From a virus: 64,000 nt of DNA. Of the stretch, positions 361 to 58,237 are shown one piece after another (positions within the stretch are counted from its first letter, which is position 1; every line of letters starts with the position of its first letter). The position numbers and the translations under genes are program-made. The notes under the pieces were generated by a model, which worked only from the letters and a program-made list of their open reading frames with translations, searched no databases and was not told the DNA's origin. The DNA is taken from IMG/VR virus record IMGVR_UViG_3300025326_000030, positions 1 to 64,000 of that record, one strand, 5' to 3'.

Positions 361-389
361 GTGCCTATAACTCCCTTATTGGTGCTTTT

Positions 390-442
390 CCTGTTTCGTC
401 TTATAGAGACTCATCAGTCTACCCTTATAAGGTAGAGACAGG
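390..442 (-). ncRNA. Type III hammerhead ribozyme
   Basis: Read 5' to 3' on the minus strand: stem III CCTG (442-439); NUH cleavage triplet GUC with C at 437; stem I TCTACC (436-431) paired with GGTAGA (423-418); core CTGATGA (417-411); stem II GTCT (410-407) paired with AGAC (401-398); core GAAA (397-394); stem III CAGG (393-390). Every invariant core base is present, including G10.1-C11.1 and A15.1-U16.1. Stem III is open, so this is type III, with only four pairs plus the U-A. Loops TTATAAG and CTATA could form a TATA kissing contact. Cleavage is predicted between 437 and 436, cutting the bicistronic mRNA between the two membrane-protein genes. Confidence 0.88.
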
Positions 443-452
443 GGCATTACCC

Positions 453-3451: not shown

Positions 3452-3457
3452 ACTTAT

Positions 3458-3531
3458 GGAACTATAGCGCAATTGGCAGAGGCATCTTGCTCAAAACAAG
3501 AATGGTGTGGGTTCGAGTCCCACTAGTTCCA
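3458..3531 (+). tRNA. tRNA-Leu(CAA), type I variable loop
   Basis: Acceptor GGAACTA pairs with TAGTTCC and A follows. Anticodon stem TCTTG/CAAGA with loop CTCAAAA gives anticodon CAA. T-arm GTGGG/CCCAC with TTCGAGT. The variable region is only five bases, whereas bacterial tRNA-Leu normally has a long arm. No CCA is encoded. Confidence 0.8.
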
Positions 3532-3534
3532 TTA

Positions 3535-3619
3535 GGAAGATTGGCAGAGCGGTAATGCCGCGGTCTTGAAAACCGTTGACAACCGAGAGGTTGCGGGGGT
3601 TCGATCCCTCCATCTTCCG
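3535..3619 (+). tRNA. tRNA-Ser(UGA)
   Basis: Acceptor GGAAGAT/ATCTTCC with discriminator G. Anticodon loop CTTGAAA gives TGA. A long variable arm (AACC/GGTT) and a T-arm with TTCGATC make it a normal type II serine tRNA. It starts three bases after the previous tRNA. Confidence 0.9.
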
Positions 3620-3623
3620 TTGG

Positions 3624-3695
3624 TGACAAGTAGCATAACGGCAATGCGCTCGCCTGTTAAGCGAGATAATATTGGTTCGATTCCAATCTTGTCAG
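3624..3695 (+). tRNA. tRNA-Asn(GUU)
   Basis: Acceptor TGACAAG/CTTGTCA with discriminator G. Anticodon stem CTCGC/GCGAG with loop CTGTTAA gives GTT. T-arm ATTGG/CCAAT with TTCGATT. The anticodon loop is identical to that of the tRNA-mimic arm in the first Y RNA at 58105-58230. Confidence 0.9.
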
Positions 3696-3698
3696 TTG

Positions 3699-3783
3699 GG
3701 AAAGTTGGCTGAGTGGCAAAGCACCAGTTTGCTAAACTGTGGTCAATCGTTGTGTTGCATAGGTTCAATCCCTATACTTTCCG
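3699..3783 (+). tRNA. tRNA-Ser(GCU)
   Basis: Acceptor GGAAAGT/ACTTTCC with discriminator G. Stem CAGT/ACTG with loop TTGCTAA gives anticodon GCT. Long variable arm and a T-arm with TTCAATC. This is the second serine isoacceptor in the cluster, reading AGY codons. Confidence 0.88.
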
Positions 3784-3786
3784 CAT

Positions 3787-3865
3787 GTGTTAGAACCCCG
3801 ATTGGCAGGGGAGCAGTCTGTAAAACTGCGGCTTCGGCGTGTAGGTTCGAGTCCTACCTAACACA
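3787..3865 (+). tRNA. tRNA-Tyr(GUA)
   Basis: Acceptor GTGTTAG/CTAACAC with discriminator A. D-stem CCCC/GGGG. Stem GCAGT/ACTGC with loop CTGTAAA gives GTA. Short variable arm closed by a TTCG loop. T-arm GTAGG/CCTAC with TTCGAGT. Confidence 0.88.
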
Positions 3866-3869
3866 TTAT

Positions 3870-3944
3870 GCCACTGTAGCCCAATCTGGTAGAGGCGATG
3901 GTCTTAGGAACCATGCGGTGAAAGTTCGAGTCTTTCCAGTGGCA
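3870..3944 (+). tRNA. tRNA-Leu(UAG), type I variable loop
   Basis: Acceptor GCCACTG/CAGTGGC with discriminator A. Stem ATGGT/ACCAT with loop CTTAGGA gives anticodon TAG (reads CUA, not the amber codon). Variable region of five bases, then T-arm GAAAG/CTTTC with TTCGAGT. As with the first tRNA, a long variable arm is missing. Confidence 0.8.
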
Positions 3945-3995
3945 CTTCCTAGTTATAATCCTGAATCTGTGATATGATGCTTTTAGAGGTTAGTA

Positions 3996-39178: not shown

Positions 39179-39991
39179 TTATTCTTCTTTTTGCAAAACT
39201 ACCGAGACGGGTATTAGATGATACCCATTGTAATCCAGAGCAATATGTGGTGTGGGAACATCCTGTTCCTGACGAATCAGATCATCCGTCAACGTAAGGG
39301 TGATAAGCGTATCACGGGTATCCTGATCCACATGATAATCAGGTTCGTCCACCACAAAGCATTCAGAGGGGTCAATGATGAGTTCATAAAGGCTTTCAGG
39401 GGTGAACATATAGGTATTGGGTATCCATCCCGCCTTGTCGTTAATTTTGAATTCTGTGGAAAGGGCGATGATACCACCAGGTTTGAGGACCCGATACATC
39501 TCGCGCACTGCCTGTTGAATATCTTCTGGTTCTCCAAAATGCTCGATGGAACTACTGCTATAGATTGCGTCAAAGGTTTCATCACGAAACTTGAGATAGC
39601 GTCCATCCATTGCTTTCACCACAAGGCGTTTTTCTTCATAGGGATAAGGCGCATATTTGCCAGGATTCTCAGGCATGTCCTTGGGAGACCAAGCATTCCA
39701 TACTTCTTGGTCATAAATGTCAGTTGCTACCACTTGCTTGACGTGTTTGGTCAAGTAAAAGGAGGTGACTCCTGCGCCAGCACCAACCCCCAGAATGGTT
39801 GCCTTGCGGGTGAGTTTGTCATAGCGGTCAAAGGCTCGAATTGCCATCGTGTTTTCCCACAGCTTACGATACCGATAATCGCCTTGCACATGGGGGAAAA
39901 CATGCCGTTCGGCAAAATGGGGAAAGATTTCCTTAATGTCTTCTAAGAGGAAATCAAAGTCGGATAGATTACACACTTTGTTGAAATTCAT
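39179..39991 (-). CDS. Class I SAM-dependent methyltransferase
   Basis: 270 residues. The Rossmann motif I reads ATILGVGAGAGVTSFYLTKH, with the acidic residue after strand two (VVATDIY), the DAIYSSSSIEHFGEP segment for motif IV and VLKPGGIIALST for post-motif. This is the methyltransferase type 11 pattern. The start overlaps the GT2 gene, and the neighbourhood suggests glycan or surface methylation. Confidence 0.85.
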   Translation of the reverse strand: MNFNKVCNLSDFDFLLEDIKEIFPHFAERHVFPHVQGDYRYRKLWENTMAIRAFDRYDKLTRKATILGVGAGAGVTSFYLTKHVKQVVATDIYDQEVWNAWSPKDMPENPGKYAPYPYEEKRLVVKAMDGRYLKFRDETFDAIYSSSSIEHFGEPEDIQQAVREMYRVLKPGGIIALSTEFKINDKAGWIPNTYMFTPESLYELIIDPSECFVVDEPDYHVDQDTRDTLITLTLTDDLIRQEQDVPTPHIALDYNGYHLIPVSVVLQKEE

Positions 39992-40713
39992 GGAAGCTCT
40001 CTCTCAAATTTCACTACGCGCTGATTTTCCCAAATGGAACGATACAGCACACGATTCTTTTCAAATGCCCCAACCCCCTTATTGGTGGTTCCGGCATAGG
40101 TATGCTGGATGGGCAGACTGGCAACTTGCCAAACCTCATATCCAGCTTGGATTGCTACAGCACAGGCATTGTCATCCCCGCTGCCACAATATCCACCTTT
40201 ATCATACCTTATGTCCATAAAATCTGGGAGGTTAAACACAGGAGACCGGACTGCCATACAATATCCCGATACGCAATCTACTGCACCCGTAAGGTCTAGC
40301 GGCGCTTCATCTTTCCACCAGTCCGGTCTAACAAACCAACCATGTGCGCCTGTAATTCCTATTTGGGGACTGTCCCCAAAGGGAGCAAGAAGGCGATCCA
40401 ACCATGAGTCGTCCAGAAAGAGAACGTCACTATCAAGGAATATTATGAAGTCCATAGCTTTGGCAAAATATATAAGTTCCATTCGTCTGCGATGGGCATT
40501 CAGGGTAAACTGATAAAGATGAACATCCATTTTTGCCAATGGGTAAATGAATGGCAAGTCTGCCACATGTTCTTCAGTTCCGTCTCCCGATCCGTCATCC
40601 ATTACGAATGTCGTAATATTCTTGCGCTGCATCGTGGGATAGAGAGAGTGGAAGCAACGTTTTACCAAATCTAATCGATTGAAGGTCGAGATACATAATC
40701 CGATATTTACCAT
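39988..40713 (-). CDS. Glycosyltransferase family 2
   Basis: 241 residues. N-terminal NIGLCISTFNR, nucleotide-binding TTFVMDDGSGDGT, DxD metal site in FIIFLDSDVLFL, and GSGDDNACAV as the acceptor-side acidic motif. The start at 40713 (MVNIGLC) is preferred to an upstream ATG. A TTTGGGGACTGTCCCCAAA palindrome lies inside the coding region at 40362-40380. Confidence 0.85.
   Translation of the reverse strand: MVNIGLCISTFNRLDLVKRCFHSLYPTMQRKNITTFVMDDGSGDGTEEHVADLPFIYPLAKMDVHLYQFTLNAHRRRMELIYFAKAMDFIIFLDSDVLFLDDSWLDRLLAPFGDSPQIGITGAHGWFVRPDWWKDEAPLDLTGAVDCVSGYCMAVRSPVFNLPDFMDIRYDKGGYCGSGDDNACAVAIQAGYEVWQVASLPIQHTYAGTTNKGVGAFEKNRVLYRSIWENQRVVKFERELP
40362..40380. repeat. Dispersed near-palindrome, best copy (TTTGGGGACTGTCCCCAAA)
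   Basis: A perfect odd-length palindrome of 19 bp inside the GT2 gene at 39988. It is one of about twenty copies of a GGGACTGTCCC core between 8731 and 58673. Confidence 0.8.
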
Positions 40714-41246
40714 GCTTTTCTCAGCATTCTTAAACCCGCCCACGCGGACCCATAACTGTCATTGTTCCCATAGATACTGAGAATACCGCAATCCACAAAA
40801 CCATCAAGGTTATCGTCAATGGCTCTTTTAATGGCTTCATGGAAAGCATCATGGAAAATCAGAACTGCTTTGGGGGTACACAACGGACGACAAGCCTGAA
40901 TATCGGCGGTCACGCCTGCGCAAGAGTGATCGCCATCAATGAAGAAGAAGTCAAAGTTAACGCCAAGCGCGGGGATTACTTCACTACTGTTCCCAATATG
41001 CAATTCTGCCCATCGTAATCCCTCAATGGTTTTTCTTCCTTCATTTACGGGGTTAATATCCACACACCATAAATGTCCCTTTCCATTGGCAATCATAGCG
41101 GCATGAATAAGTTGAGCAGACCCCCCATAAAAGGAACCAATCTCCAAAAGGTTGGTAGGACGCAAACCCCGAACCAGTGCATAAAGCATTAGACGTTCTT
41201 CCCACAGAAGTTGGGCGGGTGTATTTAGCACATCATTGAGACTCAT
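40707..41246 (-). CDS. Class I SAM methyltransferase, CmcI/rhamnosyl O-methyltransferase-like
   Basis: 179 residues. Motif I LLEIGSFYGGSAQLIHAAM, WCVDINP after strand two, FFIDGDHSCAGVTADI for the metal or substrate site, and VLIFHDAFHEAI. This matches cephalosporin-hydroxylase (CmcI) and macrocin/rhamnosyl O-methyltransferase-like enzymes that act on sugars. A close paralogue is at 42323-42880. Confidence 0.82.
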   Translation of the reverse strand: MSLNDVLNTPAQLLWEERLMLYALVRGLRPTNLLEIGSFYGGSAQLIHAAMIANGKGHLWCVDINPVNEGRKTIEGLRWAELHIGNSSEVIPALGVNFDFFFIDGDHSCAGVTADIQACRPLCTPKAVLIFHDAFHEAIKRAIDDNLDGFVDCGILSIYGNNDSYGSAWAGLRMLRKAW

Positions 41247-41518
41247 GGTTCAGACTCTTTTCCGAGATATAGATATTGAAACCAAGATGCGCCCAAATCG
41301 TTTCGGTTGGTGTAACCTGTTAACAACACAACATCCCCATCTTGCAATTCCGAATCTGCGTTTTCTACTGTTCTTATAGGAATAAACCCATAATCTTCAG
41401 TCAAGAACGCATCATACATTAGATCATTATATAAGCAAGTGATTGCTCGAATAACGGATCGGCGCAAATTAGGATGTGCCTTGTAGAAATCGTAGACCTC
41501 TTTAAGTTTCTCGTTCAT
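41243..41518 (-). CDS. Hypothetical protein
   Basis: 91 residues, mixed charge with an N-terminal helix and a beta C-terminus (DGDVVLLTGYTNR). It overlaps both neighbours by four bases. No family recognised. Confidence 0.5.
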   Translation of the reverse strand: MNEKLKEVYDFYKAHPNLRRSVIRAITCLYNDLMYDAFLTEDYGFIPIRTVENADSELQDGDVVLLTGYTNRNDLGASWFQYLYLGKESEP

Positions 41519-41751
41519 TCTTGCAACTCCGCCAACTTATTTTTTAGATAGTTTATGTACTTTTCCATTTTGACCTTATCTTCTCGCATAGCATCTTGCT
41601 TCAACGCTTCTTGTATCACTATTTTCGTAGCCTCTTCTTTTCTCTGAACGCTATAGGCGTAAGCCTCCGTACTTCTTATGAACAGAAGGTTGTAATGTTC
41701 AAGTTGACCACGAATGATAAGTTCCGCAATTGCCTTGTTATCAACTTCCAT
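41515..41751 (-). CDS. Small coiled-coil protein, tandem paralogue of 41741-41983
   Basis: 78 residues: a short N-terminal block (VDNKAIAELIIRGQLEHYN) followed by a long charged coiled coil. The adjacent upstream gene has the same layout (TDNKTVLEFLIRGRIDDYG), so the pair arose by tandem duplication. Function unknown. Confidence 0.55.
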   Translation of the reverse strand: MEVDNKAIAELIIRGQLEHYNLLFIRSTEAYAYSVQRKEEATKIVIQEALKQDAMREDKVKMEKYINYLKNKLAELQE

Positions 41752-41983
41752 TTTCAGCTTCCCCCAGAGCGGCTTTCATTGCTTTTATTACTCCTTCAAG
41801 TACGGCATTTTCTTTTTCAAGGGATTCTTGTTTCTCGCGCTCACGAACTAGAAACTCAATGGCATCTTTTTCTAATCGTCGGCTCCGATCAAGTTCGTAC
41901 CTATTCCTCATAAGCATAATGCCGTAATCATCAATACGACCACGAATCAGGAATTCCAGAACCGTCTTGTTATCGGTTTCCAT
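41741..41983 (-). CDS. Small coiled-coil protein, tandem paralogue of 41515-41751
   Basis: 80 residues from ATG 41983, which has AGGAAG upstream. The same N-terminal block and Arg/Glu-rich coiled coil as its neighbour, diverged to about half identity by eye. It may form a hetero-oligomer with the other copy. Confidence 0.55.
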   Translation of the reverse strand: METDNKTVLEFLIRGRIDDYGIMLMRNRYELDRSRRLEKDAIEFLVREREKQESLEKENAVLEGVIKAMKAALGEAENGS

Positions 41984-42326
41984 TTTCAGCTTCCTTATAC
42001 TTGATAAATTGTTCACAAAGGAACAGTGCGGCGTCTTCTCTTCTCAACCCATAAAGATGAACCATGTCCTTAGTGGTTAATCGGTCGTTCTGTAGATACC
42101 ACAAGAGTTCCCATGCAGCATCTAGGCTCTGGGTATAATGAGGCAATAATCTATATTCTTTCCCATTATCAGTAACGTAAACATCCACTGTATATTCCCA
42201 ACTATGAACCGGAAAGCTAACTTTCAATCCAGATAATTCTGCAACTCTTATATCAATTTTTCTTTCCTGTCTAAGAAGTTCGATCTCTTTTTCTTCTGCC
42301 TCTTTGGTATAAATTTTCTGTCTCAT
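41970..42326 (-). CDS. Hypothetical protein, ABA-sandwich-like
   Basis: 118 residues from ATG 42326, which overlaps the methyltransferase stop. The C-terminal half (TQSLDAAWELLWYL then EDAALFLCEQFIKY) resembles the small phage ABA-sandwich proteins also seen at 48049 and 53802. The first 30 residues are a charged helix. Confidence 0.45.
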   Translation of the reverse strand: MRQKIYTKEAEEKEIELLRQERKIDIRVAELSGLKVSFPVHSWEYTVDVYVTDNGKEYRLLPHYTQSLDAAWELLWYLQNDRLTTKDMVHLYGLRREDAALFLCEQFIKYKEAENGNR

Positions 42327-42880
42327 TTCAGCCTCAACATTCTCAGACCACCCCAAGTGGTATTGGTATTCTTATCTACGGGTGCATGAACTGTCAAGAT
42401 TCCGCAATCTACCCCGAAGTAGTGCAATGAATCACTAATGGCACGCTTAACTTCTGGATTATGAGCATCATGGAAGAGCAGCACTGCCCCCAGTTCTGAC
42501 ATTGAAAGCGCACACTCAATATCTTGCTTCACCCCTCGATAGGAATGGTCGCCATCAATGAACACGAAGTCAAATAGAATATTAGCCTCAGTATCTCGTC
42601 GGCTTGCATACAAGTCCCAGCTACTACCCTTAATCAGGGCAACATCGGGTAAGGCGTCGACAAAAACTTCCAATTCTGGCTGCGGGTTAATATCTACGCA
42701 ATGCAGATTCCCGCAACCATTAGCAAGCATAGCTTGATGTATGATTCTGGCAGACCCGCCAAAGGCAGAACCAATTTCAAGGATATTTGTTGGTCGCAGT
42801 CCTCGAACCAATGCGTAGAGCATAATCTTCTCATCGGGTTCAAGTAAGGCGCGAATGTCTAAAATTTTATTTATATCCAT
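42323..42880 (-). CDS. Class I SAM methyltransferase, CmcI-like, paralogue of 40707-41246
   Basis: 185 residues. Shares MLYALVRGLRPTN, ILEIGSAFGGSARIIHQAM, CVDINP, FVFIDGDHSYRGVKQDI and LLFHDAHNPEVKRAI with the enzyme at 40707. The two probably methylate different positions of one glycan. About 1 kb of small genes separates the copies. Confidence 0.82.
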   Translation of the reverse strand: MDINKILDIRALLEPDEKIMLYALVRGLRPTNILEIGSAFGGSARIIHQAMLANGCGNLHCVDINPQPELEVFVDALPDVALIKGSSWDLYASRRDTEANILFDFVFIDGDHSYRGVKQDIECALSMSELGAVLLFHDAHNPEVKRAISDSLHYFGVDCGILTVHAPVDKNTNTTWGGLRMLRLK

Positions 42881-56076: not shown

Positions 56077-57645
56077 TCAGAGTTCGTACTTATTTACAGC
56101 ATCTACCTGTGTACCCAGACCATTAGCGGTTAGCGCAATGAACTTTAGGATGCTATCACTCCATCCGTAGATGTAATACACATCTGGCTCGTTTTGTGGT
56201 GCAACCGCATGGCGATAGGGAGCCAACTGGATCAAGAAGGCTTTTGCCTTGGGCGAAACATGGCGCTTATACTGCTGCCACAGTTCCACGAAGCCACTGC
56301 CTACCCATTCCGCGCTGTCGGTGATACCAATGAAAATGTCCACTTTGGTCCGATCATCTATCAATTGTTTGATGGGCGCACTCAGACTAGTACCCCCGCC
56401 ACCAATGGCGGCAAGGCGATTAGCAGTAGTCATCATGCTATCCTGTGCGGAGAGCTTGATAGGCACCACGCGAGACTCAAAGGGCAAGACCAAGCTCATC
56501 TTGCTCTTCTTCAGGAGCGCAGCCGCGAAAATACCCGCCACGTCAATGAAGCGCGTAGCACCCTTATCAGTCAGTTGCCCACTCATGCTCCCGCTTACGT
56601 CTGGGGCAATGCAGATTACGCCCTCAAGGTCAGGCAGGTTCACAAAACTTTTGTCAATTGCACTGACCAACGACTCACTAACCGCCTGCTCAACATGATT
56701 CTGAGGGTTGAACATCTTATAAGCCGTGAACAAACGGAAGGGCAGAATCTTGGCTTTATGGATATTCTCTGCGTCATTCATGCGCGTTGCCACATACGCG
56801 GCGTTATCTTGATCTGCCAAGACCCCTGCCTTTTGCAAGGTATTCAGGTGGCGCATGAGTGCCATATAAGGCATTTGACGCATGAGAGAAGACCACAGGG
56901 ATTTGTCGGGTTGAATCACCCCCGTGACAATCTCGTAGGGCAGCTTGCCAGAGGCAATCAATCCCTCGTATTCGTCAGGGGGTGATTTCTTAAGCATTTC
57001 AAATGCCTCTAGCTGAGGCGTAAGTGCGCGACTGCGGGTATCAAGCCACTTATCGGGTTGAGTTAGATACATGAAAATAGTGTTCTGCTTCTCACTGGTG
57101 GTCTTGGGATGCACTAGACGCAGAATATCCCGAATAGCATACCCCTGACCACCTGTAGCGTACTTCAGGGCGTGGTATTCACTCAAATTCAGAAGCCAAT
57201 TGGCAATCATGCGTTTAATGGCACGTCCCATGCCCTTAGAGCCCACCACGCCACCCCGAACAATCTCCACGAAGTCCGCCAGATCACCAGGAGTTAGAAT
57301 CACACGACTGAAAATCTGTCGGGCAATCTGGGGGTGTCGTTTAGCCAGATGCGCCAACCCAATAACGGGTTGCATACGCATCAATCCCTCATTGCGGGCA
57401 TAGACAATTGCCTTTGCCGCAAACTGGGGACTGTCCTGCGTCATTTGGGCATGGAGACCCAGAGATTCTCGGAGCAACTTCTCTTCAGACGCATAGAACG
57501 TACCCCCAAGCGTATTGGTGAGAAGCACCTGAAGGTAAGCCTCTTCATCACTGCGTTGGAAAGTAGGAAACCCTTCATAATTCACCTCAGTGGTTGCATC
57601 GTAAGGATTCAAATTTTTAACGAACTTATTTTGTACGCGCCCCAT
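56077..57645 (-). CDS. rsr: TROVE domain protein, Ro60/Rsr orthologue
   Basis: 522 residues, the standard Rsr size. Residues about 25-330 are the HEAT-like TROVE ring that grips Y RNA and structured RNA ends; residues about 340-520 are a von Willebrand A domain with DVSGS (Asp349, Ser351, Ser353), GGGGTSLSAP (Thr) and GITDSAEW (Asp), so the metal site is complete. In bacteria Rsr works with Y RNA and PNPase in RNA quality control. Here it follows an array of four Y RNA-like units in the same orientation, supporting one transcript. GGTTAAC precedes the ATG with AGGAAGG as ribosome-binding site. Confidence 0.92.
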   Translation of the reverse strand: MGRVQNKFVKNLNPYDATTEVNYEGFPTFQRSDEEAYLQVLLTNTLGGTFYASEEKLLRESLGLHAQMTQDSPQFAAKAIVYARNEGLMRMQPVIGLAHLAKRHPQIARQIFSRVILTPGDLADFVEIVRGGVVGSKGMGRAIKRMIANWLLNLSEYHALKYATGGQGYAIRDILRLVHPKTTSEKQNTIFMYLTQPDKWLDTRSRALTPQLEAFEMLKKSPPDEYEGLIASGKLPYEIVTGVIQPDKSLWSSLMRQMPYMALMRHLNTLQKAGVLADQDNAAYVATRMNDAENIHKAKILPFRLFTAYKMFNPQNHVEQAVSESLVSAIDKSFVNLPDLEGVICIAPDVSGSMSGQLTDKGATRFIDVAGIFAAALLKKSKMSLVLPFESRVVPIKLSAQDSMMTTANRLAAIGGGGTSLSAPIKQLIDDRTKVDIFIGITDSAEWVGSGFVELWQQYKRHVSPKAKAFLIQLAPYRHAVAPQNEPDVYYIYGWSDSILKFIALTANGLGTQVDAVNKYEL

Positions 57646-57742
57646 GTTAACCTTCCTTTTGGGGTATAATCAAACCGAACCTTAGATAATTGCCTTATTC
57701 TCTATTGTGACGCCACTGTAAGGCGTTCTCTTGATGATTGCG

Positions 57743-57843
57743 CCATGAAGAAGGTTTTTTGAGAATCATTGCGGATTTGAACCGCTAATGGCATAGAGCC
57801 ATTCGTTAACCGATACGAAGCAGACCCCCAACTCACCTCATGG
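57743..57843 (-). ncRNA. Y RNA-like unit D
   Basis: 5' stem CCATGAGG (57843-57836) pairs with 3' CTTCATGG (57750-57743). Inside: a TTCGT/ACGAA hairpin, then TGGC/GCCA (a variable-arm-like hairpin), then a T-arm copy GCGG-TTCAAAT-CCGC. No clear D-arm copy. It is followed by the conserved GCGCAATCAT block. Last of four units before the TROVE gene. Confidence 0.72.
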
Positions 57844-57854
57844 TGATAATACCG

Positions 57855-57990
57855 CTACGAAGAAGTTGTCTGTACAGGACTTTCATAACCGCTGCTTTGA
57901 AGACTTAGCTACATCCCAATTTGGAATGGACGGATTTCATACCGTCGATCACGGTTTGTCGTCGAAGCACCCCATACATGCACCTCGTAG
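57855..57990 (-). ncRNA. Y RNA-like unit C
   Basis: 5' stem CTACGAGG (57990-57983) pairs with 3' CTTCGTAG (57862-57855), a compensatory variant of the stems in units A, B and D. Inside, a T-arm-like GACGG/CCGTC hairpin with an eight-base loop, a closed acceptor-like CATTCC/GGGATG stem, then TAGCT...AGC as a degenerate D-arm, in the permuted order of unit A. Followed by GCGGTATTAT-type sequence. Confidence 0.72.
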
Positions 57991-58006
57991 TTCTTAAATA
58001 ATTGCG

Positions 58007-58078
58007 CTGTGAAGAATTGTGTGTGGAGAGGCACATTTTGATTTTCAGTCGGAGTAGCCCCGTCCATTCGCCTCACAG
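58007..58078 (-). ncRNA. Y RNA-like unit B, short form
   Basis: 5' stem CTGTGAGG (58078-58071) pairs with 3' CTTCACAG (58014-58007). Only 72 nt. Inside are CGG/CCG and TGTG/CACA hairpins, with no tRNA-like arms recognised. The 3' flank GCGCAATTAT matches that of the other units. Confidence 0.68.
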
Positions 58079-58104
58079 TCGTGAATCTAAACCATATAAT
58101 AGCG

Positions 58105-58230
58105 CCATGAAGAAGTTGGTTCGGAAACAGCTTTTTATGCTCTGCCGATTGAGCTACGCATTTCTGCGGCGAGACTCGAACTCGCATACTTCGATTAACA
58201 GTCGATGAAGTCCCCGATAGCACCTCATGG
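58105..58230 (-). ncRNA. YrlA-type Y RNA, unit A with permuted tRNA mimic
   Basis: 5' stem CCATGAGG (58230-58223) pairs with 3' CTTCATGG (58112-58105). Between lie, in order: an anticodon-like hairpin with loop CTGTTAA (as in tRNA-Asn), a T-arm GCGAG/CTCGC with TTCGAGT (58185-58169), an acceptor stem CGCA-GAAA-TGCG (58168-58157) closed by a GNRA tetraloop, and a D-arm TAGCTCAATCGGCAGAGCA (58156-58138). Arms occur in circularly permuted order, the hallmark of bacterial YrlA RNAs, which bind Rsr through the end stem. Confidence 0.8.
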
Positions 58231-58237
58231 TATCACC

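What the first reader, a model, noticed from the sequence alone, without database searches (positions are those of the whole stretch)
58105..58230. Unit A is a circularly permuted tRNA mimic, and the four units mimic different tRNA parts
Unit A contains, in order, an Asn-type anticodon hairpin (loop CTGTTAA), a canonical T-arm, an acceptor stem closed by a GAAA tetraloop, and a D-arm. This is the permuted order known for bacterial YrlA RNAs. Unit C repeats the plan in degenerate form, unit D has a T-arm plus a variable-arm-like hairpin but no D-arm, and unit B (72 nt) lacks tRNA arms. The phage also encodes a tRNA-Asn with the same anticodon loop (3624-3695). A graded set of mimics could recruit different tRNA-handling enzymes to the TROVE ring.
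Basis: partly seen in the sequence, partly recalled or inferred. Interest (0 to 1): 0.8.

Follow-up and report, generated by a model that had tools for sequence, protein, structure and literature searches.

The report
Phage Y RNA mimicking whole tRNA
Next to its Ro60-like ring protein gene, this phage encodes a small RNA that is a complete tRNA cut open and rejoined in a new order, anticodon arm included; such RNAs turn out to be common near phage and bacterial Ro60 genes, although the published RNA-family model leaves the anticodon arm out.

Summary
On the minus strand, directly upstream of a TROVE/Ro60 gene (56077-57645), lie four tandem Y-RNA-like units. Unit A (58105-58230) reads anticodon hairpin, T-arm, acceptor stem closed by GAAA, D-arm: a tRNA opened at 26/27, with the Ro60-binding stem at the opening. 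It is a YrlA-type Y RNA (Rfam YrlA partial match 30.5 bits, below the 69-bit cut-off; 61 bits with a model from 43 homologues that excludes the window). Unit C is a degenerate copy (19 bits). Unit D has one credible T-arm; unit B has none. In 156 non-redundant Ro60-linked homologues the tRNA Levitt pair 15-48 covaries (G-C 108, A-U 40, 8 exceptions; p=2e-29). In 47 of them a 7-nt-loop hairpin sits exactly 5 nt before the T-stem (about 4 expected). So the anticodon arm is a widespread feature missing from Rfam's model, not a peculiarity of this phage. Its loops are mostly U36-A37 or G36-G37, as tRNA position-37 modification enzymes require. Most likely role: Ro60 RNP scaffold whose tRNA-like end binds a tRNA-recognising protein. 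'Different units recruit different enzymes' has no support. Chen et al. 2014, which founded the field, could not be read, so novelty of the arm is uncertain.

The parts
56077..57645 (-). Ro60-like ring protein (TROVE + Ro60 vWA), 522 aa, downstream gene on the same strand
   Evidence: Pfam TROVE 69.9 bits and vWA_Ro60 62.9 bits, both over cut-off; PDB Ro60 E 1e-23 and Deinococcus Rsr E 3e-20; MIDAS motif DVSGS at residue 349
58105..58230 (-). Unit A: YrlA-type Y RNA with a complete circularly permuted tRNA module
58223..58230 (-). Unit A closing (Ro60-binding) stem, 5' strand CCAUGAGG; pairs with 58105-58112
   Evidence: fold; compensatory changes between the four units
58105..58112 (-). Unit A closing stem, 3' strand CUUCAUGG
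58191..58205 (-). Anticodon-type hairpin UCGA-CUGUUAA-UCGA (U33, pseudo-anticodon GUU, A37 A38)
   Evidence: homologous position in 47 of 156 Ro60-linked YrlAs
58169..58185 (-). T-arm GCGAG-UUCGAGU-CUCGC; U48 at 58186 matches A15 at 58149
58157..58168 (-). Shortened acceptor stem (positions 4-7:66-69) closed by GAAA
58139..58156 (-). U8 A9 and D-arm GCUC-AAUCGGCA-GAGC with A14, A15, G18, G19, A21
58002..58082 (-). Unit B: Y-RNA-like unit with closing stem CUGUGAGG; no tRNA arms
   Evidence: fold z -2.6; no significant model match
57851..57991 (-). Unit C: degenerate YrlA-type unit; model match at 57886-57972 (T-arm with 8-nt loop, acceptor hairpin, D-arm-like GUAGCUAAG without GG)
   Evidence: 19.0 bits, E 1.5e-4 in 751 nt; 0.013 over the window
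57739..57844 (-). Unit D: Y-RNA-like unit with T-arm GCGG-UUCAAAU-CCGC (57771-57785) and hairpin AAUGGC-UCUAU-GCCAUU (57787-57803)
   Evidence: fold z -3.2; T-arm 6.7 bits, E 0.07
3624..3695 (+). Phage tRNA-Asn(GUU) with the same anticodon loop; one of six tRNAs at 3457-3945

Best explanation
Unit A is the tRNA-like Y RNA (YrlA type) of a phage-encoded Ro60 ribonucleoprotein. Its closing stem, shared with units B-D, binds the outside of the Ro60 ring. The other end is a tRNA opened between positions 26 and 27, its acceptor ends joined by GAAA, which folds into the normal tRNA core and keeps the anticodon arm. The four units are probably co-transcribed as the leader of the Ro60 mRNA and cut into separate Y RNAs. 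The tRNA-like end then docks a host protein that recognises tRNA (a modification enzyme such as TruB/Dus, or an exonuclease such as PNPase in the RYPER complex) and so aims or gates the Ro60 ring. Shown here: Ro60 gene, units, arms, core covariation, conservation. Known for other YrlA RNAs from the literature: Ro60 tethering, D and pseudouridine modification, PNPase complex. Inferred: co-transcription, processing, the partner and the purpose during infection.
For: Ro60 gene directly downstream on the same strand. Four units with a covarying closing stem. Unit A matches YrlA and, better, an independent homologue model. Homologues sit next to Ro60 genes in phages and bacteria. Four helices pair in 98% of cells, with 183 both-side changes against 51 in shuffles (the anticodon helix was part of the selection). 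Levitt pair 15-48: 148 of 156 as G-C or A-U, Fisher p 2e-29; unit A fits with A15-U48. Cultured phages carry the same arrangement, e.g. Xanthomonas phage Olaya with three graded units and Microbacterium phage FuzzBuster. YrlA is a substrate of DusA and TruB and part of RYPER (PMC8394870).
Against: Rfam's gathering score for YrlA is not reached (30.5 of 69 bits). No promoter-like or terminator-like site was found on the minus strand here, so transcription is not shown. The homologue model also scores tandem tRNA genes, up to about 40 bits in this window and near 60 in genomes, so its bits alone do not prove a YrlA; the 12-nt acceptor hairpin does the separating. No partner protein is indicated by the sequence. 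The shared Ro60-site bases were compared only by eye and a small k-mer count.
Confidence: 0.75

Rival explanations
1. Decoy: the permuted tRNA with an anticodon arm is an uncharged target held on Ro60 that soaks up host anticodon nucleases or other tRNA-attacking defences during infection.
For: The anticodon arm is retained at its exact tRNA position in many phage YrlAs; phages with Ro60 often carry tRNA genes nearby, as here. A competitive-inhibitor role against an anticodon nuclease was proposed for Salmonella YrlA (PMC7790460).
Against: Pseudo-anticodons are very mixed, not matched to one nuclease. Actinobacterial and other bacterial genome contigs carry the arm too. The Salmonella YrlA was not cleaved by the nuclease (PMC7790460).
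Confidence: 0.2
2. The anticodon arm is a docking site for anticodon-loop modification enzymes: U36-A37-A38 loops for the t6A37 complex (TsaBDE) and G36-G37 loops for TrmD (m1G37), giving the RNA a modified, stabilised or sensing loop.
For: U33 in 43 of 47; of those 43, 31 are U36-A37 and 7 are G36-G37, against 1231 of 2545 real tRNAs in the same loci (p 8e-8), while 34-35 vary.
Against: Found after looking at the data and only partly independent samples; the attempted replication set held one arm (U36-A37). G37 among G36 loops is not significantly enriched by itself (7 of 8 against 308 of 539, p 0.15). A purely structural preference would look alike.
Confidence: 0.2
3. Unit A is a decayed or captured tRNA fragment (pseudo-tRNA) with no Y RNA function.
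For: Anticodon plus T-arm alone score 15.5 bits as tRNA; ARAGORN calls the equivalent RNA in phage Olaya a tRNA-Asn.
Against: The Ro60-type closing stem shared and covarying with three neighbours, the acceptor stem closed by GAAA, and the Levitt covariation across phages are not expected of a decaying fragment.
Confidence: 0.03
4. The graded set B, C, D are specialised mimics that recruit different tRNA enzymes.
For: Units differ in which tRNA parts they keep; phage Olaya also has three graded units.
Against: C has lost G18-G19 and has an 8-nt T-loop; the D T-arm match is marginal (E 0.07); no homologue of C or D was found that conserves its particular part set. Decay of duplicates explains it as well.
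Confidence: 0.1

Closest known systems
YrlA (Y RNA-like A, Rfam RF02553; Salmonella, proteobacteria)
   Same: Next to a Ro60 gene; closing stem; T-arm, acceptor hairpin and D-arm in permuted order
   Different: Unit A has an anticodon arm that the Rfam consensus lacks; Rfam score below the family cut-off; different closing-stem sequence
Phage and bacterial Y RNAs described by Chen et al. 2014 (RNA 20:1715; not held, cited from PMC12282133 and PMC9569102)
   Same: tRNA-like Y RNAs next to Ro60 in mycobacteriophages and many bacteria
   Different: Could not be checked whether the anticodon arm was noted there
Deinococcus Rsr-Y RNA-PNPase complex (RYPER)
   Same: Ring protein with Y RNA scaffold
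   Different: Partner unknown here; bacterial host protein versus phage Ro60
Circularly permuted tRNA genes of algae
   Same: 3' half of the tRNA precedes the 5' half
   Different: Those are processed into working tRNAs; here the acceptor stem has 4 bp, no CCA and a closed end

Membership tests
YrlA-type Y RNA | Encoded next to a Ro60/Rsr gene | tested here: met
   Unit A lies about 460 nt upstream of the TROVE/vWA gene, same strand
YrlA-type Y RNA | Stem joining 5' and 3' ends as Ro60 site | tested here: met
   8-bp stem, compensatory changes among four units; actual binding not testable
YrlA-type Y RNA | T-arm, acceptor hairpin, D-arm in this order with tRNA signature bases | tested here: met
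Rfam RF02553 | Score at or above the gathering cut-off of 69 bits | tested here: not met
   30.5 bits; none of 18 scanned homologue loci reaches it either, so the Rfam model covers only part of the type
YrlA-type Y RNA | Dihydrouridine and pseudouridine added by DusA and TruB | not testable with these tools
   target loops present; needs RNA
YrlA-type Y RNA | Binds Ro60 and tethers an effector such as PNPase | not testable with these tools
   needs biochemistry
tRNA (RF00005) | Linear cloverleaf with free acceptor ends, score 29 bits or more | tested here: not met
   15.5 bits; ARAGORN finds no tRNA there; acceptor closed by GAAA
Ro60/TROVE protein | TROVE domain plus vWA domain with MIDAS | tested here: met

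The most novel reading that the evidence does not exclude
YrlA RNAs with a full anticodon arm are a large, unmodelled subclass, common in phages, whose loop is kept under selection to be read by anticodon-loop enzymes (t6A37/m1G37 modification, or anticodon nucleases), so that Ro60 particles sense or compete in tRNA modification and damage during infection.
Probability: 0.3. Interest if true: 0.75.

Novelty: new variant of a known kind. Interest (0 to 1): 0.52.

Why it matters
The partners of most bacterial and phage Y RNAs are unknown. A Y RNA that keeps an anticodon arm, with loops restricted at 36-37, narrows the candidates to proteins that read that loop and can be tested in cultured phages (Xanthomonas phage Olaya, Microbacterium phage FuzzBuster, Gordonia phage BearBQ). 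It also shows that the Rfam YrlA model misses this type and that tRNA finders can mistake it for tRNA-Asn.

Tried and rejected
Close relatives of this phage: none by protein pattern in viral contigs or by megablast of 24 kb in phages. The first anticodon-arm pattern was off by one and found nothing. Genome survey with the homologue model: every one of 198 genomes rings because tandem tRNA genes match it, so it cannot count YrlAs. Replication of the loop statistics with T-loop GTTCAA: only 9 Ro60-linked domains, one with an arm; too few. A second hairpin peak at V=1 (27 of 156) seems to come largely from G-U pairs with the G-rich variable loop and was not followed further. Folding energy of unit A alone is uninformative. 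Chen 2014 and the YrlA structure paper are not in the library; searches for YrlA with anticodon or permuted tRNA gave nothing on point.

Full report
What is there. The window is part of a 64,752-base virus record with no close relative found. A 522-aa TROVE plus Ro60-vWA protein is encoded at 56077-57645 on the minus strand; solved Ro60 and Rsr structures match at E 1e-23 and 3e-20. In the 585 nt before it, on the same strand, lie four units, each closed by a stem of one pattern. The variable pairs change together: CCAUGA/UCAUGG in A and D, CUGUGA/UCACAG in B, CUACGA/UCGUAG in C. Each unit is followed by GCG, two bases and an AU-rich stretch.

Unit A. Free folding of 58101-58233 gives closing stem, second stem, anticodon-type hairpin, T-arm, acceptor stem closed by GAAA and D-arm. 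In tRNA numbering it has U8, A14, A15, G18, G19, A21, U33, G34-U35-U36, A37, A38, U48, G53-C61, U54, U55, C56, A58. It is a tRNA opened between 26 and 27, with acceptor positions 4-7:66-69 joined by a tetraloop. Rfam YrlA covers T-arm to D-arm at 30.5 bits. A covariance model from 43 homologues, without the window, gives 61.3 bits for A, 19.0 for C, a T-arm only for D and nothing for B.

Are the arms real in relatives? Contigs were fetched by patterns that specify only T-arm and D-arm or acceptor loop. Kept were non-redundant hits with a self-complementary acceptor hairpin and a Ro60 reading frame on the same strand within 3.5 kb: 156 cases, with a few from named phage records. The patterns demand canonical arms, so the set says nothing about how many Y RNAs lack them. 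A hairpin of 4 or more pairs with a 7-nt loop lies exactly 5 nt before the T-stem in 47, against 4.2 in shuffles and about 5 at most other offsets. Base 15 and base 48, far apart in this permuted order, are G-C in 108 and A-U in 40, with 8 exceptions (p 2e-29); the same holds without the anticodon arm (102 of 109) and with it (46 of 47). This is the Levitt pair of tRNA and is direct evidence for a tRNA-like tertiary core. In 44 aligned sequences, 98% of helix cells pair and 13 of 19 pairs show changes on both sides; the anticodon helix was a selection criterion there, so its percentage is not independent, while its compensatory changes (4 of 5 pairs) are informative.

The loop. Of 47 arms, 43 have U33. 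Positions 36-37 are U-A in 31, G-G in 7, A-A in 2 and others in 3; real tRNAs in the same loci have U-A or G-G in 1231 of 2545 (p 8e-8). The wobble and middle positions vary: GUU 11, UGU 4, GCU 4, GUG 3 and 15 more kinds. The arm thus imitates a class of anticodon loops rather than one tRNA. U36-A37-A38 and G36-G37 are the contexts read by the t6A and m1G37 enzymes (established tRNA biology, from my own knowledge); docking of those enzymes is inference, and the statistic was found after looking.

Relation to what is known. YrlA is described as mimicking the D, T and acceptor arms, is modified by DusA and TruB, and takes part in RYPER (PMC8394870); phage Y RNAs are known (PMC12282133). In Rfam's model the anticodon arm has no place: in one bacterial contig it appears as a 13-nt insert, and 18 homologue loci give no YrlA match at the cut-off; two give weak tRNA matches that overlap the YrlA domain. 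Cultured phages carry it: Xanthomonas phage Olaya has three units in a row, one without the arm, one degenerate and one full, with Ro60 behind them, and ARAGORN calls the full one tRNA-Asn; Microbacterium phage FuzzBuster and Gordonia phage BearBQ have the arm; two mycobacteriophages show a 3-bp version.

Mechanism. Best supported is a Ro60 particle in which the closing stem holds the ring and the tRNA-like end binds a tRNA-recognising protein. Which protein, and why the anticodon arm is kept, is open: docking of anticodon-loop enzymes, a decoy for anticodon nucleases, or plain core stability.

Limits. No expression data; no promoter-like or terminator-like site on this strand passed the scan. 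The 2014 paper that defined bacterial and phage Y RNAs could not be read, so the anticodon arm may already be described there.

Noticed in passing
window 388-444 (-): Rfam hammerhead ribozyme type III, 49.2 bits, just over the cut-off of 48.5.
   Followed up: no
L125:2797-2867: ARAGORN reports a tRNA-Asn(gtt) that is really the anticodon and T-arm half of a YrlA-type Y RNA in Xanthomonas phage Olaya; such calls may be frequent in phage genomes. Two other YrlA loci (L040, L519) reach Rfam's tRNA cut-off.
   Followed up: partly
L125:2339-2906: Three tandem YrlA-type units before the Ro60 gene of phage Olaya: arm-less, degenerate and full, a parallel to units A-D.
   Followed up: partly
window 57730-58105: Each Y unit is followed by GCG, two bases and an AU-rich stretch (GCGCUAUUAU, GCGCAAUUAU, GCGGUAUUAU, GCGCAAUCAU), possibly a cleavage site.
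   Followed up: no
window 39179-42880 (-): A cluster of methyltransferase and glycosyltransferase genes.
   Followed up: no
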